DNA from: Thermoleophilum album
Lineage (GTDB): Bacteria; Actinomycetota; Thermoleophilia; Solirubrobacterales; Thermoleophilaceae
Reading direction: 5' to 3'
Assembly (NCBI RefSeq): GCF_900108055.1
Contig: NZ_FNWJ01000002.1
Span: 816,382 to 880,381 of the forward strand
Length of the DNA stretch: 64,000 nucleotides
The translations under genes and the position numbers were made by a program. The notes under the pieces are model-generated. The model saw only the letters and a list, made by a program, of their open reading frames with translations. It made no database searches and was not told where the DNA came from. Positions 14,205-35,212 of this stretch are shown piece after piece. Numbering within the stretch: the stretch's first letter is position 1; every line of letters starts with the position of its first letter.

Positions 14205-14272
14205 GCGGCGCTGTTTCACGACCCGGCCGCTCGGGTCCGCTGGCGTCCGCCGCCGCTGCTAGCGTTCCAGCC

Positions 14273-14391
14273 GCGCCGAGCCGATAGCCGCACTGGCTAG
14301 CGGGCGGGGGACCCAGTCAACCCCGGGGCGAATCGCGGTCCGAGCGCCGTGACGCGCATAGCGCGAGCCCGACAGCTAACCCCGTAGGCGC
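14273..14391 (+). ncRNA. ydaO-type cyclic di-AMP riboswitch
   Basis: Conserved blocks of the ydaO/yuaA class are present in order: GCGCCGAG (P1, 5' side), GCGGGGGACCCA, CCCGGGGCGAATCGCGG, GCGCGAGCCC, GACAGCTAACCCCGTAGG and GCGC closing P1 (14387-14391 pairs with 14273-14277). The class binds c-di-AMP and in actinobacteria commonly turns off wall hydrolase and resuscitation genes. Here it lies 64 nt before a CAP domain gene that is frameshifted. Confidence 0.88.
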
Positions 14392-14454
14392 AGCGACAAG
14401 AGCCCCGTCCAGACACTCCCTCGCCACCCAGCGAGAGAAACGGAGGTCGACCGT

Positions 14455-22311: not shown

Positions 22312-22947
22312 TCAGAAGCCAGCGGGGTGGCGTGCGACGTAGCCGCGCAGGGGACGCATCGACCGGCTCCAGCGAGGTCCCGTGCGCGGCAGGCGCAGCT
22401 GACGTGAAGCTATCCGTGCCTCGCGATCGCGGTAGCCGGTGTCGAAGCGCAGCCCGGCGACCACCAGGAAGGTGTGCCCGCCGTGCGCGTAAACCGTCAC
22501 CCAACGCCCTCGCCCCGGCTCTCCCCATGACATCAGCGATCCCGAGTCGAGCGGGGAGTCGAGGAAACCGCCCCCGAAAAGGGCGTAACTGACAGCGCCC
22601 GAGCAGTCGTAGCCGCTGTCGAGCCCGTTCGAGAAGGGGCGATGGCCGCCGCCGTAGCGGTAGGGCTTGGAGACGATGCGGTTAGCGAACGCAATCAGCC
22701 GCTTTACCTCGGGCGGAGCGTCGATCGGCGCGATCGCGCGACCGTTCACGAGCTTCGCTTTGCCGGCCGGAGGCACGAACATCGCACCGCCGCTGGTCGA
22801 AGCGGCGTTGGGGGCAGGCCGCGCGCTTGCCGCGCCGCTTGACGCGCCCGTATCGCCCAGGGCGGGAGCGCAGAGAGCAACCGCACTTGCGCACGTGGCG
22901 AGCGCGGCAAGAGAGAACAGGCGTCGTGTCGGACGTCGTTGTCTCAC
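22312..22947 (-). CDS. secreted NlpC/P60 peptidoglycan hydrolase
   Basis: A 211-aa exported protein: signal peptide (about residues 1-31), a 60-residue linker, and an NlpC/P60-type cysteine peptidase domain. The catalytic Cys is in DSGYDCSGAVSYAL (about residue 118) and the His in AHGGHTFLVVAGLRFDTG (about residue 157). These enzymes cut stem peptides of peptidoglycan. The start is GTG 22947. A ydaO-type riboswitch lies nine bases upstream, so expression should fall when c-di-AMP is high. This gene-riboswitch pairing is well known in actinobacteria. Confidence 0.86.
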   Translation of the reverse strand: MRQRRPTRRLFSLAALATCASAVALCAPALGDTGASSGAASARPAPNAASTSGGAMFVPPAGKAKLVNGRAIAPIDAPPEVKRLIAFANRIVSKPYRYGGGHRPFSNGLDSGYDCSGAVSYALFGGGFLDSPLDSGSLMSWGEPGRGRWVTVYAHGGHTFLVVAGLRFDTGYRDREARIASRQLRLPRTGPRWSRSMRPLRGYVARHPAGF

Positions 22948-22956
22948 GATCTCTTT

Positions 22957-23097
22957 CCAACGCCTGCGGGGTTAGCTGACGGGCTCGCGCGGGAAGAGAT
23001 CGCGCTCCTCGCCGCCGTGAGACGGAGAGGTTCGCCCCCGGTGGCACTGCCACCAAGTGGGTCCCCCGCTCCACGCGGTGCGTGGATTCGGCGTTGG
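22957..23097 (-). ncRNA. ydaO-type cyclic di-AMP riboswitch
   Basis: Read on the minus strand, P1 is closed by CCAACGCC (at the 5' end) and GGCGTTGG (at the 3' end). Between them are the class blocks CGCCGAATCC, GCGGGGGACCCA, CCGGGGGCGAACC, GCGCGAGCCC and GTCAGCTAACCCCGC. The element ends only about nine bases before the GTG start of the NlpC/P60 gene, so it could act on translation as well as on transcription. Confidence 0.9.
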
Positions 23098-23254
23098 CGG
23101 CAACCTACCAGATCCGTCGGAGGGATTCATCCCGCGCCGCGCGCTTCCTGCAAGCGGGCAGAATCTGCCGTTGCTCGCGTGCCGGTCGCGGCTGGGAGGG
23201 TCGCGGCTGCCGCGCTGCCTCGCCGGTCGTCCTCTGTAAGAGTCCCGTACGCAG

Positions 23255-31000: not shown

Positions 31001-32350
31001 TCAGAGGACGGGCAGGTAGCGGTCGAGCTCCCACTGCGTTACTTGCACGCGGTACTCCTCCCACTCCTGCCGCTTGATCTCGACATAGCGGTTGAAGATG
31101 TGCTCGCCGAGCGTGCGCAGGACCAGCTCCGACTCGGCCGTCAGCTCGATCGCCTCCCCGAGCGTCTCCGGCAGCTGCTCGATGCCCAGCCGCTTTCGTT
31201 CGTCGGGGCTCAGGTGGTAGAGGTTCTTCTCCATCGGCTCGGGCAGTTCGTAGCCCTTCTCGATGCCCTCGAGCCCGGCCGCCAGCAGCACGGCGAAGGT
31301 CAGGTAGGGGTTGCATGCCGGGTCGGGGCAGCGGATCTCGGCGCGCGTCGCTTGCTCCTTGCCGGGGTGGTAGAGCGGCACGCGGATCAGCGCCGAGCGG
31401 TTGCGCCGCGACCACGCGCAGTACACGGGCGCCTCGTAGCCCGGGACCAGTCGCTTGTAAGAGTTCACCCACTGCGCGAAGATCGAGGATATCTCGCGGG
31501 CGTGGCGGAGCTGGCCGGCGATGAAGCGCTTAGCGGTGTCCGAGAGGAAGTACTGGTCGTTGGGATCGAAGAACGCATTCTTGTCGCCCTGGAACAGCGA
31601 CTGATGGGTGTGCATGCCGGAGCCGTTGACCCCAAACAAGGGCTTCGGCATGAAGGTCGCATGCCACCCGTACTTCATCGCGATCTCTTTGACCGTGATG
31701 CGGTAGGTCATCGTGTTGTCGGCCATCTCGAGCGCGTCCGCGTAGCGCATGTCGACCTCGTGCTGTGAGGGACCGACCTCGTGGTGCGAGTACTCGACGT
31801 GGATCCCCAGCCGCTCGAGCGCTAGGACCGTCTCCCGCCGCACGTCGGTGCCGGCATCGAGCGTCGTGAGGTCGAAGTAGCCGCCTTCATCGAGGATCTC
31901 CGGCTTGCCGTTATCCGGCTTGGCGTTCTTGAAGTAGAAGTACTCGAGCTCCGGCCCCACGTAGAAGTGGTCGAAACCCATCTGCCGGGCGCGTTCGAGG
32001 GTGCGTCGCAGGACGTAGCGCGGGTCGCCTTCGTACGGCTCGCGCTCCGGCGTGAGGATGTCGCAGAACATCCTTCCCACACCCTGCTCCTCGGGCCGCC
32101 AGGGCAGGATCGCGAAGGTCGACGGGTCCGGCATCGCGATCATGTCGGACTCCTCGATGGCGTTGAAGCCGGTGATCGACGAGCCGTCGAAGCCCATCCC
32201 GCCCTCGAAGGCATCGTCGAGCTCGGCGGCGTTGATCGAGAAGCTCTTGAGGTGACCGAGAATGTCAGTGAACCAGAGGCGAACGAAGCGGATGTTGCGC
32301 TCTTCGACGATCGCTTTGACGTCGTCGGCGGTCTTCGGCCTTTCGCTCAC
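31001..32350 (-). CDS. glnA: glutamine synthetase, type I
   Basis: A 449-aa enzyme that makes glutamine from glutamate, ammonia and ATP in a dodecamer. Motifs: FDGSSITGFNAIEESDMIAM (beta-grasp loop), GPELEYFYFK (metal Glu), NGSGMHTHQSLF (latch, near residue 245) and WSRRNRSALIRVP. A tyrosine lies in NLYHLSPDE, the position adenylylated in GSI-beta enzymes, but the overall length is that of the shorter GSI-alpha type. The GTG at 32350 has GGAGG upstream. No riboswitch or GlnR-like box was recognised in the short leader. Confidence 0.93.
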   Translation of the reverse strand: MSERPKTADDVKAIVEERNIRFVRLWFTDILGHLKSFSINAAELDDAFEGGMGFDGSSITGFNAIEESDMIAMPDPSTFAILPWRPEEQGVGRMFCDILTPEREPYEGDPRYVLRRTLERARQMGFDHFYVGPELEYFYFKNAKPDNGKPEILDEGGYFDLTTLDAGTDVRRETVLALERLGIHVEYSHHEVGPSQHEVDMRYADALEMADNTMTYRITVKEIAMKYGWHATFMPKPLFGVNGSGMHTHQSLFQGDKNAFFDPNDQYFLSDTAKRFIAGQLRHAREISSIFAQWVNSYKRLVPGYEAPVYCAWSRRNRSALIRVPLYHPGKEQATRAEIRCPDPACNPYLTFAVLLAAGLEGIEKGYELPEPMEKNLYHLSPDERKRLGIEQLPETLGEAIELTAESELVLRTLGEHIFNRYVEIKRQEWEEYRVQVTQWELDRYLPVL

Positions 32351-32492
32351 GCTCGGTCCCTCCGTCCTCGGTTCGCTTGTGACAACACGGGTTCGACGCG
32401 CACCTACGCGCCGTGCACCCCACGGGCGTCACGTGCGCGCGGGCAGCCCCCGCGGTGACCGCGGTCGGGCCGGCGCATCTTAGCCAGCGCGT

Positions 32493-32915
32493 CTAGAGCC
32501 AGGCGTGGGCCCAGCGCTTGAGCGCCCTGACCACTGGCTCCAGCGCCTGACCCTTAGGTGTCAACGCATACTCGACGCGGGTCGGCGAGTGGTCGACCTC
32601 ACGCCGCTCGACGATGCCCTCCGCCTCAAGCTCCTTGAGGCGCTCGGATAGCAGGCGATCGGAGAGTTGCGGGACCAGGCGTTTGACTTCCGAGAAGCGC
32701 AGCGGGCCCTCCATCAGCACCAGGATGATCGCGCCCGTCCAGCGCTTACCGATCAGTTCGACGGCACGGTGGTAAAGCGCACAGCAGGGCTCGCGCGAGC
32801 AGACGTTCGCCGCTTCTGCGTCGAGCGCAGCGCGGTCCGCCGCAGACGCGCGGCCTGCCGCCGCAGCGCCGCCTGCCGCCAACGCTGGCGACGCCGCCCG
32901 CACTTCCCCGCCCAC
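32493..32915 (-). CDS. HxlR-type winged-helix regulator with N-terminal cysteines
   Basis: A 140-aa transcription factor. The winged helix runs from about residue 55: IGKRWTGAIILVLMEGPLRF, LSDRLLSERLKELEAEGIVE, and PTRVEYALTPKGQALEPV. Before it come three cysteines (39, 44, 45) in VCSREPCCALYH. Some HxlR proteins sense disulfide, aldehyde or quinone stress through such cysteines. It lies 18 bp downstream of an AhpD-like gene on the same strand, so the pair probably form one operon and the regulator may control it. The first 35 residues are Ala-rich and probably disordered. Confidence 0.83.
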   Translation of the reverse strand: MGGEVRAASPALAAGGAAAAGRASAADRAALDAEAANVCSREPCCALYHRAVELIGKRWTGAIILVLMEGPLRFSEVKRLVPQLSDRLLSERLKELEAEGIVERREVDHSPTRVEYALTPKGQALEPVVRALKRWAHAWL

Positions 32916-32933
32916 CCGTCCTACCCCCTGGCG

Positions 32934-33503
32934 TCAGGCAGCCTCGACGAGATCCCCGCGCATTCCGGTCGCCGCCTCGGCCGGCAAGTTCGCCGCGCGC
33001 GCAACCAGGCACGCAAATCGCCAAACGCCGACGTGAGCGATCGCTTCGAGCAGCTGCTCATCGCTCCAGCCGGCCTCGCGTGCCTCTTCTTGGAGGTGTT
33101 CGGGCGGCGGCCCATCACCCTCGAGCAGAGCCTTCAGGTAGCGCAGTAGCACCGCCTCGCGTTCGTCGAACGAATCGAACTCGCGCGCCAGCGCGATCTC
33201 GTCGAGGCCGAGGCCAGCGCTACGGGCGAGGCGCTGTGCCTGCGCGAGCTGGTACTCGCACCCCTCGTGGGCGGCTACCGCGACCGCGATGCGCAGCTGG
33301 GTCGCCCGTGGCAAAGCCCCGTCGCGCAGCTCCGCGAGGAACCGCGCGTAGCCGCGCAGTACCGCCGGCGCGCCTGCCAGCACGCCGACGAAGTTACTGA
33401 TCTTGGCGCCGCGGGCAAGTGCCCCGCGCAGAACCGCGAGACTCCGCTCGGGCGCGGTCAGTTCGTCGTGGACGTGAAACCTGCTCTCCCGGCTCTTGGC
33501 CAT
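32934..33503 (-). CDS. AhpD/carboxymuconolactone decarboxylase-like protein lacking CXXC
   Basis: A 189-aa helical protein similar to the AhpD/CMD family. The active-site helix reads VAVAAHEGCEYQLAQAQRLA: the first Cys is present but the partner position is Gln, so the redox CXXC of true AhpD is missing. The fold may still bind a ligand or act as a hydroperoxide or lactone enzyme with one Cys. ATG 33503 is preferred (GAGG upstream); ATG 33530 is an alternative. It is upstream of and co-oriented with the HxlR regulator gene. Confidence 0.68.
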   Translation of the reverse strand: MAKSRESRFHVHDELTAPERSLAVLRGALARGAKISNFVGVLAGAPAVLRGYARFLAELRDGALPRATQLRIAVAVAAHEGCEYQLAQAQRLARSAGLGLDEIALAREFDSFDEREAVLLRYLKALLEGDGPPPEHLQEEAREAGWSDEQLLEAIAHVGVWRFACLVARAANLPAEAATGMRGDLVEAA

Positions 33504-33679
33504 CGCGTTCCACCTCGCCGCCCGAGTCATCTCACGCCGCTTATCGAGCGTGAGTCCACACGCGAGTATAGGGAGACGCTGCGGCCTCCTGACCACGCGT
33601 GGGCGACGGGACGAAGCCGGCAGAACCGTGTGCTTCAGGGCCAGCGATAGCTGCCGCGAAACGCGCTGTTGTTTTGTTT

Positions 33680-33961
33680 TCAGCCGCCGGGCGTGAGGTG
33701 CGCGCTACCGGCCGCCGCCAGCACCAGCAGGAGACCGAGGGCAAAAGCCCAGCCGGCGAGCCGGTGCGGCGGTCCCGCGACCAGCGTCGGCGCGCGACGA
33801 GGACGGATCCGCGCCACCTCGACGCCCTCGCGACGCGCCTCGGAGCGCGAAACCAGCCATACCTCCCGCTCGAGATCCAGCTGTGCGCGCCCGTAGGGTC
33901 CCCCGATGCGGACCGTGCGGCGCTGCTCCCGGCGCTTGCGTTCGATCGTCTGCGTGGACAT
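33680..33961 (-). CDS. 93-aa single-span membrane protein under a c-di-AMP riboswitch
   Basis: A small protein I do not recognise. The first 62 residues are hydrophilic and basic (MSTQTIERKRREQRRTVRIG at the start), with LDLEREVWLVSRSEARREGV in the middle. One transmembrane helix follows (GWAFALGLLLVLAAAGSA, about residues 70-87) and a six-residue tail. By the positive-inside rule the long N-terminus should be cytoplasmic. A ydaO riboswitch sits about ten bases upstream of the ATG, which argues that this is a real gene controlled by c-di-AMP. No other gene is close enough to be co-transcribed with certainty; the next is 176 bp away. Confidence 0.7.
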   Translation of the reverse strand: MSTQTIERKRREQRRTVRIGGPYGRAQLDLEREVWLVSRSEARREGVEVARIRPRRAPTLVAGPPHRLAGWAFALGLLLVLAAAGSAHLTPGG

Positions 33962-33971
33962 CGCTTGTTGC

Positions 33972-34106
33972 TTCCGGCCTACGGGGTTAGCTGACGGGCT
34001 CGCGCCAACGGCGCTACGCGGCACTCCGGCCGCGACTCGCCCCGGGACCATCAGATCCGATTGGGTCCCCCGCGCTCTGGCATCGCTGCCAGAGCCTCGG
34101 CCGCCG
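33972..34106 (-). ncRNA. ydaO-type cyclic di-AMP riboswitch
   Basis: On the minus strand the class blocks appear in order: CGGCCGAGG, GCGGGGGACCCA, CCCGGGGCGAGTCGCGG, GCGCGAGCCC, GTCAGCTAACCCCGTAGGCC. The ends GGCCGAG and GTAGGCC close P1. It is the third copy in this window and regulates the 93-aa membrane protein gene that starts at 33961. Confidence 0.88.
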
Positions 34107-34207
34107 TTCGGGAGCGGCATGGTAACACAGCATTAGAGAGCCCCGGGCGGACGGAAACTGAAGTCCCGCAGCGGGACCCCCGAGGTCGCGAGAATCGGCC
34201 CCGCCAG

Positions 34208-34699
34208 CTACTGACCGCGCCCGGCCACGCGCGCTACGTAGGCCGCCACCGCACGCGCCTCATCGCCGCTCAGCAGACCGGCGGGCATGCGACCTTCGCC
34301 GGCGCCGCCGATCCGGATTGCCCGCAGCACACGGGCCTCGTCGAGCGGAGCTAGCTGGTCGAGGTTCGGGCCGACTACCCCCTTCGCCTGCACCGCATCG
34401 AGGGTGTGGCAGCTGGCGCAAACCTCACGGAACAGCTGCTTACCCCGCTCGAGCTGACCCTTCGCCGGTTCGTTGCGCAGCGGACCGACGCCGCCCAGCG
34501 CGTCGTGCTTGGCGGAGATCGCGATCGCCGGGGTGACGACCCCGCAAACGACCACGATCAGCCCGATCGCCACTCGGAAGATCCGCGGTCCGCCGGTGAG
34601 GTAGGCACGACGGGCGCCGCTGGGACCACCGAAGAACGCCGCGAACGCCACCAGCAGGCCGGCGATGAGGAAAGGCAGAAGAATCGCGACGGCGGTCAT
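34208..34699 (-). CDS. membrane-bound cytochrome c
   Basis: A 163-aa protein with two N-terminal membrane helices (about residues 1-24 and 41-62) and a C-terminal mono-heme domain outside the membrane. The heme attachment site is FREVCASCHTLDAV (about residues 88-101). The distal heme ligand is probably the Met in GEGRMPAGLLS. It could be an electron donor in the respiratory chain. Cytochrome c maturation genes ccmE and ccmF lie 3-6 kb away. ATG 34699 is preferred; GTG 34711 in the same frame is also possible. Confidence 0.83.
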   Translation of the reverse strand: MTAVAILLPFLIAGLLVAFAAFFGGPSGARRAYLTGGPRIFRVAIGLIVVVCGVVTPAIAISAKHDALGGVGPLRNEPAKGQLERGKQLFREVCASCHTLDAVQAKGVVGPNLDQLAPLDEARVLRAIRIGGAGEGRMPAGLLSGDEARAVAAYVARVAGRGQ

Positions 34700-34753
34700 G
34701 CGGACCGGCACTCTACCCGCTCGAGCGGTTTTAGAGGCAGCTCGACGAAACTA

Positions 34754-34780
34754 GGAGACCCCCGCCGTGGCGGGGGTCTC
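34754..34780 (-). terminator. hairpin downstream of RNase P RNA
   Basis: A perfect stem (GGAGACCCCCGCC and GGCGGGGGTCTCC) with a tiny loop lies six bases past the RNase P RNA 3' end. The T tract that follows (TAGTTTCG) is weak. It probably marks the end of rnpB transcription. Confidence 0.6.
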
Positions 34781-34785
34781 CCGTA

Positions 34786-35212
34786 GCTGGCCTGTAAGCC
34801 GGATTCTGTCGAGAGCAGCCATCCATCTCGCCCGCGCCGATCCCTGGGGACCACCGCGGACGGGGCTCCGAGGAGCCCTGCGGCCTACCTGGGGCTCGGC
34901 GGGCAGCGTCATCGCCCCTGCTTGGCCTTGCACCGGGTGGGGTTTGCCCGGCCAGCGTGTCACCACGCTGCCGGTGCGCTCTTACCGCACCATTTCACCC
35001 TTGCCGGCGGCGAGACTCACGTGCGGTCCCGCCGCTTAGGCGGTGTCGTTTCTGTGGCACTTTCCCGCGGGTTTCCCCGGGTCGGTTTCCCGACCACCCT
35101 GCCCTGCGGTGTCCGGACTTTCCTCGAGGGGACCGGTTTTCTCCCCGGTCTCCCCCGCGGCTGCTCGGCCAGCAAGAGCAAGGGTAGGCCGCTTTCGAGG
35201 GCTCGTCTAGGG
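34786..35212 (-). ncRNA. rnpB: RNase P RNA, type A
   Basis: On the minus strand the universal blocks are all present: GAGGAAAGTCCGGAC and CCGCAGGGCAGGGTGG near the 5' end, GGGTGAAATGGTGCGGTAAG (P10-12 region), and the 3' end GACAGAATCCGGCTTACAGG. The spacing and P-helices fit an ancestral type A RNA of about 425 nt. It forms the catalytic part of the enzyme that trims tRNA 5' ends. The exact termini are estimated from these blocks. Confidence 0.95.

What the first reader, a model, noticed from the sequence alone, without database searches (positions are those of the whole stretch)
33680..34106. c-di-AMP riboswitch driving an uncharacterised 93-aa single-span membrane protein
The riboswitch blocks are seen directly and the class is established as c-di-AMP-binding. 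Known targets are mostly wall hydrolases and ion transporters. Here the gene encodes a basic cytoplasmic head and one helix, with no enzyme domain, which suggests a new kind of c-di-AMP effector, for example a small regulator of a membrane complex or of wall growth.
Basis: partly seen in the sequence, partly recalled or inferred. Interest (0 to 1): 0.6.

Follow-up and report, generated by a model that had tools for sequence, protein, structure and literature searches.

The report
c-di-AMP-switched, enzyme-less wall-hydrolase relative
A known kind of RNA switch that senses the bacterial signal c-di-AMP sits in front of a small membrane protein; in relatives the same switch and the same chromosomal spot carry a cell-wall-cutting enzyme, so this looks like a version of that gene that keeps the membrane anchor but has no enzyme.

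Summary
Rfam RF00379 (c-di-AMP/ydaO aptamer) matches window 33960-34112 on the minus strand (50.5 bits, cut-off 38). A 93-aa ORF (33680-33961, minus) starts at its 3' end. The protein has a disordered basic N-terminal part, one C-terminal membrane helix (residues 65-88), and no Pfam, NCBIfam or PDB match.

It belongs to a single-copy family found here only in Solirubrobacterales (70 orthologues; none outside that order among 296 genomes drawn from the phylum). In 54 of the 70 a ydaO aptamer lies just upstream. The locus (lexA-rnpB-)cytochrome c-[ydaO gene]-(CMD-)glnA is conserved. Sixty-one orthologues are enzyme-less like this one. In nine, at the same locus with the same switch and helix, the gene continues into PG_binding_1 plus an RlpA-like lytic transglycosylase, or in one case an Rpf-like domain. 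The genome's other nine ydaO elements precede wall or envelope proteins.

So this is a passenger-less member of a c-di-AMP-controlled wall-hydrolase locus, kept under purifying selection. Its function as a small c-di-AMP-repressed wall-growth membrane protein is inferred. Ligand binding, switch direction, and domain loss versus gain are not shown.

The parts
33960..34112 (-). c-di-AMP (ydaO/yuaA) riboswitch aptamer, RF00379
   Evidence: cmscan 50.5 bits, gathering score 38, full-length match
33680..33961 (-). CDS of the 93-aa single-span membrane protein (stop included)
   Evidence: translation; profile match in own genome E 2.3e-21 to a family of 70 orthologues; dN/dS 0.09-0.43 in 15 of 16 pairs of family members
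33899..33922 (-). RRTVRIGG motif (residues 14-21), the conserved cytoplasmic segment of the family
   Evidence: alignments; R[TA][VI]x[IV]x[GS] found in 36 of the 45 enzyme-less rows examined, some of which are partial
33698..33769 (-). C-terminal transmembrane helix (residues 65-88), beginning at the P[DH]R motif and ending close to the C-terminus
   Evidence: AlphaFold2 helix 65-88, hydropathy, invariant P65, A69, A72 and near-invariant D66, R67, W71, G76
32934..33503 (-). neighbour: carboxymuconolactone decarboxylase/AhpD-like gene
   Evidence: Pfam PF02627; conserved at the locus in most relatives, on the opposite strand in family f3
31001..32350 (-). neighbour: glutamine synthetase glnA, same strand
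   Evidence: same strand in 31 of 31 related loci examined
34208..34711 (-). neighbour: membrane-bound cytochrome c
   Evidence: Pfam PF13442/PF00034; conserved synteny
34779..35176 (-). neighbour: RNase P RNA (rnpB), which marks the syntenic locus
   Evidence: RF00010, 200 bits; also beside the locus in L076, L079, L071, L091, L099, L100, L042

Best explanation
The gene at 33680-33961 is the enzyme-less form of a ydaO-controlled gene that sits at one conserved place (cytochrome c ... glnA) throughout Solirubrobacterales. In some lineages that gene encodes a secreted or membrane-anchored wall hydrolase (PG_binding_1 + RlpA-like, or Rpf-like). Here only the cytoplasmic RRTVxIxG segment and the P[DH]R...W helix remain, the helix ending at what would be the signal-peptidase region of the hydrolase forms. 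Proposed mechanism: when c-di-AMP is low the aptamer leaves the leader open, and the protein is made together with the genome's other ydaO-controlled wall proteins. It inserts N-in/C-out as a tail-anchored single-span protein, probably self-associating through its small-residue helix face, and uses the conserved cytoplasmic segment to hold or tune a wall-growth or hydrolase complex. When c-di-AMP is high it is shut off with them. Shown: aptamer, ORF, conservation, synteny, domain variants, selection. Inferred: ligand response, OFF direction, topology, partner and function.
For: RF00379 hit. 54 of 70 orthologues have an over-threshold ydaO just upstream, the start codon usually within about 15 nt of its end. 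One copy per genome in nearly all. Family confined to the order in a 296-genome phylum sample. Conserved locus order, including the hydrolase-bearing forms; glnA co-directional in 31/31. Genus g22 (L084, L086, L088, L089, L092, L093) and family f3 (L091, L099, L100) carry the same helix followed by PG_binding_1 + DPBB_1 or a weak Transglycosylas match. L092 has WWAEV, RRTVRIEG and helix, then the hydrolase, linking the two forms in one protein. f3 genomes G053, G041, G059 have a plain secreted PGB+RlpA-like protein, and G217 an RlpA-like one, on the same contig just before glnA. The other nine ydaO genes of this genome: five M23, one transglycosylase, one DPBB, one weak NlpC/P60, one CAP split over two frames. 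dN/dS 0.09-0.43 in 15 of 16 family pairs. Single helix. DAC present. Literature: ydaO in Actinobacteria is an OFF switch on cell-wall genes (PMC9960051, PMC10117811, PMC11481543).
Against: No ligand-binding or expression data. Fourteen orthologues with at least 1 kb of upstream sequence lack the aptamer, so switch and protein are separable. The loop-RBS pseudoknot seen in most relatives is not supported in this element, whose loop is about 3 nt, so its expression platform is unclear; no terminator was found. The closest same-genus pair gives dN/dS 0.85 on few changes. N-terminal parts differ greatly in length and sequence, which fits a specific partner poorly. Whether the enzyme was lost or gained is unresolved.
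Confidence: 0.57

Rival explanations
1. The riboswitch's important target is the downstream operon (glnA, with or without the CMD gene), and the small ORF is a leader or a passive first cistron.
For: glnA is on the same strand in 31 of 31 loci, and in about a third it starts 13-240 nt after the riboswitch-linked gene with no CMD gene between.
Against: The ORF is conserved as protein and under purifying selection. CMD is on the opposite strand in f3. In the window the CMD gene and another ORF lie between it and glnA. At this locus in f3 and g22 the first cistron is a wall hydrolase, the usual ydaO target. A C. glutamicum ydaO element affects only the first gene (PMC9960051).
Confidence: 0.1
2. 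The protein is a decaying remnant of a wall hydrolase with no function of its own.
For: Orthologous locus with hydrolase forms; C-terminus falls at the signal-peptidase-like AxA region in 31 of 45 enzyme-less rows; variable N-terminus.
Against: 61 enzyme-less orthologues over many genera keep the PDR...W...G helix. dN/dS is well below 1 in 15 of 16 pairs. No hydrolase remnant lies at the window's locus in a search that reads through stops.
Confidence: 0.13
3. It is a membrane-anchored regulator unrelated to wall hydrolases by descent; the hydrolase forms arose by later fusion of hydrolase domains to an existing small anchor protein.
For: Enzyme-less form is the majority (61 of 70). g22 hydrolase domains form their own clade on a long branch and do not group clearly with f3 ones.
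Against: The locus in f3 holds ordinary secreted RlpA-like hydrolases; the switch's regulon is wall genes.
Confidence: 0.2

Closest known systems
[quoted passage not shown]
   Same: Aptamer over the family cut-off, immediately upstream of one gene, in a genome with a diadenylate cyclase and a ydaO regulon of wall genes; no terminator found, as reported for the actinobacterial examples (PMC9960051).
   Different: The target here has no hydrolase or transporter domain, and the aptamer has a short loop without the usual loop-RBS pairing.
RlpA-like lytic transglycosylase with PG_binding_1 (PF01471 + PF03330) at the same locus in genus g22 and family f3
   Same: Same locus, same switch, same PDR..W helix (QDR..W in L092); L092 also has WWAEV and RRTVRIEG.
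   Different: The extracytoplasmic enzyme part is absent in the window's protein.
Rpf/transglycosylase-like protein (PF06737) at the same locus in L100
   Same: Locus, switch and helix.
   Different: Carries a transglycosylase-like domain (weak Pfam match, E 0.011, below cut-off).

Membership tests
c-di-AMP riboswitch RF00379 | Covariance score over the curated cut-off | tested here: met
   50.5 bits vs 38
c-di-AMP riboswitch RF00379 | Invariant core blocks including GUCAGCUAAC and GUAG | tested here: met
   alignment, sequence
c-di-AMP riboswitch RF00379 | In the 5' leader of a gene on the same strand | tested here: met
   aptamer model ends at 33960, ATG begins at 33961
c-di-AMP riboswitch RF00379 | Loop-tail pseudoknot | tested here: inconclusive
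   7-8 bp in most relatives, 4 bp (one of them in the loop's closing stem) in the window element; no better than exchanged tails
c-di-AMP riboswitch RF00379 | Genome makes c-di-AMP | tested here: met
   one PF02457 match, 103 bits; enzyme activity untested
c-di-AMP riboswitch RF00379 | Binds c-di-AMP and changes expression | not testable with these tools
   needs in vitro probing or a reporter
RlpA-like / PG_binding_1 wall hydrolase | PF03330 or other hydrolase domain in the protein | tested here: not met
   no Pfam family for P0001; no remnant at the locus
RlpA-like / PG_binding_1 wall hydrolase | Same locus, switch and anchor as the hydrolase forms | tested here: met
Enzyme-less ydaO-associated anchor family of Solirubrobacterales (described here) | RRTVxIxG segment plus C-terminal P[DH]RxAxWA...G helix, single copy | tested here: met
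LysM division inhibitors beside lexA (YneA, ChiZ/Rv2719c; recalled, not searched) | Single helix followed by a LysM domain | tested here: not met
   no LysM by Pfam; protein ends after the helix

The most novel reading that the evidence does not exclude
A c-di-AMP riboswitch regulon that is otherwise wall enzymes includes an enzyme-less, tail-anchored single-span protein which works in its own right, as a c-di-AMP-repressed regulator or recruiter of the wall-growth machinery. It is kept at one locus over an order of bacteria and in some lineages is fused to the hydrolase it would otherwise act beside.
Probability: 0.42. Interest if true: 0.6.

Novelty: new variant of a known kind. Interest (0 to 1): 0.43.

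Why it matters
Actinobacterial c-di-AMP riboswitches are discussed almost wholly as switches on wall hydrolases. Here one is kept across an order on a protein without an enzyme, at a locus where relatives have one. If the protein is functional, c-di-AMP controls not only which hydrolases are made but also a membrane component that may place or restrain them. The natural fusions suggest which enzyme to test with it.

Tried and rejected
(1) The 146-aa frame from 34120 was rejected as the gene because it runs through the aptamer. (2) Pfam, NCBIfam and PDB profile searches gave no relative. (3) A LysM division-inhibitor reading, prompted by lexA nearby, was dropped: no LysM domain, and the C-terminus ends after the helix. 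(4) Ordering domain loss against gain: a GlnA tree left the deep forks open and an 87-column DPBB tree did not join the g22 and f3 hydrolases, so polarity stays open. (5) Loop-RBS pairing as expression platform: clear in most relatives, not in the window element; over the whole set own tails pair only slightly better than exchanged ones, 15.67 against 14.68, sd 0.26. (6) Thermodynamic folding of the leader was not distinctive (z -1.23). (7) The two weakest HMM hits (G312, G069) were an ABC permease-like and a lipoprotein-like frame, by eye, away from the locus and were dropped.

Full report
Observation. The window holds an RF00379 aptamer at 33960-34112 (-), 50.5 bits against a cut-off of 38, with the conserved core blocks. 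An ATG at 33961 (-) opens a 93-aa ORF. The structure model shows one confident helix, residues 65-88, and low confidence elsewhere. No Pfam, NCBIfam or PDB relative was found. The genome has ten ydaO elements and a diadenylate cyclase.

Relatives. tblastn found the C-terminal half in the genus and beyond, and ydaO elements lie upstream of most of these matches. A profile (A2) matched 66 of 299 class genomes, one copy each in all but one. Two of the 66 were spurious and were dropped. With six further relatives this makes 70 orthologues. 54 of them have an over-threshold ydaO just upstream; two of the other 16 are cut by contig ends, leaving 54 of 68. A draw of 296 genomes over the phylum gave matches in this order only. 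Contig matches name family f1 as Thermoleophilaceae and f2 as Solirubrobacteraceae. That the window is a Thermoleophilum is my inference from family and genome size, not tested.

Anatomy. The conserved parts are RRTVxIxG in the cytoplasmic segment and P[DH]RxAxWA...G in the helix. A WWx[DE]V...LR N-terminus occurs in part of f2. In the enzyme-less members the chain ends about 26 residues (median, counted from the PDR motif) along, often at an AxA sequence of the kind that marks signal-peptide ends (31 of 45 rows). dN/dS is 0.09-0.43 in 15 of 16 pairs; the exception (0.85) is the closest pair, with few changes.

Key link. In six g22 genomes and in f3 genomes G044, G038 and G315, the gene behind the ydaO element has the same helix but goes on into PG_binding_1 + DPBB_1 (RlpA-like), or in G315 a transglycosylase-like domain with only a weak match. 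L092 has the WW helix, RRTVRIEG, the membrane helix and the hydrolase in one chain. The gene order (lexA-rnpB-)cytochrome c-[ydaO gene]-(CMD-)glnA is shared by enzyme-less and enzyme-bearing forms. Cytochrome c was not detected between rnpB and the ydaO gene in f3. In f3 genomes G053, G041, G059 and G217 a secreted RlpA-like protein without the PDR helix sits just before glnA. So this is one modular locus: the switch is mostly constant and the product varies. No hydrolase remnant remains at the window's locus.

Regulon. The other nine ydaO elements of this genome precede five M23 peptidases, one transglycosylase, one RlpA-like protein, one weak NlpC/P60 match and a CAP protein split over two frames. 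Published work says ydaO genes in Actinobacteria are almost all cell-wall related and OFF-regulated: by translation for C. glutamicum nlpC (PMC9960051), by transcription for rpfA (PMC10117811), with six such hydrolases in S. venezuelae (PMC11481543).

Expression platform. In most relatives the aptamer loop CUCUUUC can pair with the RBS GAAAGAG. The crystal construct printed in PMC5393176 has the same arrangement by eye, and a CTCC-GGAG version is proposed in PMC9960051. In the window element the loop is reduced to about three bases and the pairing is not supported. No terminator was found. I expect translational control, but this is inference.

Function. I think it most likely that the protein is a small c-di-AMP-repressed membrane component of wall growth or hydrolase placement. 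The anatomy, the regulon and the natural fusions point that way; no partner or phenotype is known. Whether the enzyme was lost or gained is unresolved.

Literature on the protein itself. I found none. A table of lineage-specific proteins (PMC6544083) lists a 93-aa Thermoleophilaceae protein, WP_093115661.1; whether it is this one could not be checked.

Noticed in passing
14264-14404 (+) and downstream: Another ydaO element (51 bits) before a CAP/SCP-like gene that is split over two frames (CAP halves match weakly in two different frames); either a frameshift in the assembly or a broken gene.
   Followed up: partly
22946-23103 (-): A third ydaO element in the window (74.3 bits), before a secreted protein with only a weak NlpC/P60 match (E 0.033).
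   Followed up: partly
31001-33961 (-) and L048, L060, L064, L065, L072, L074, L079, L084, L088, L089, L093, L095: glnA is always on the same strand downstream of the ydaO gene (31 of 31 loci), and in many genomes starts only 13-240 nt after it, so glutamine synthetase could share the transcript of a c-di-AMP-switched gene.
   Followed up: partly
L041, L019 (genus g15); L102-L104 (genus g32) and other loci: Orthologues that keep the small protein but have no detectable ydaO element; in g32 a sister genome (L101) still has it.
   Followed up: partly
L002/L008 (own contig C3:23533-23931): Two divergent ydaO elements about 110 nt apart drive two M23 peptidase genes in opposite directions.
   Followed up: no
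L007, L009, L012, L013 leaders: In the window's genus several ydaO elements have a shortened loop lacking the loop-RBS pseudoknot seen in most relatives.
   Followed up: partly
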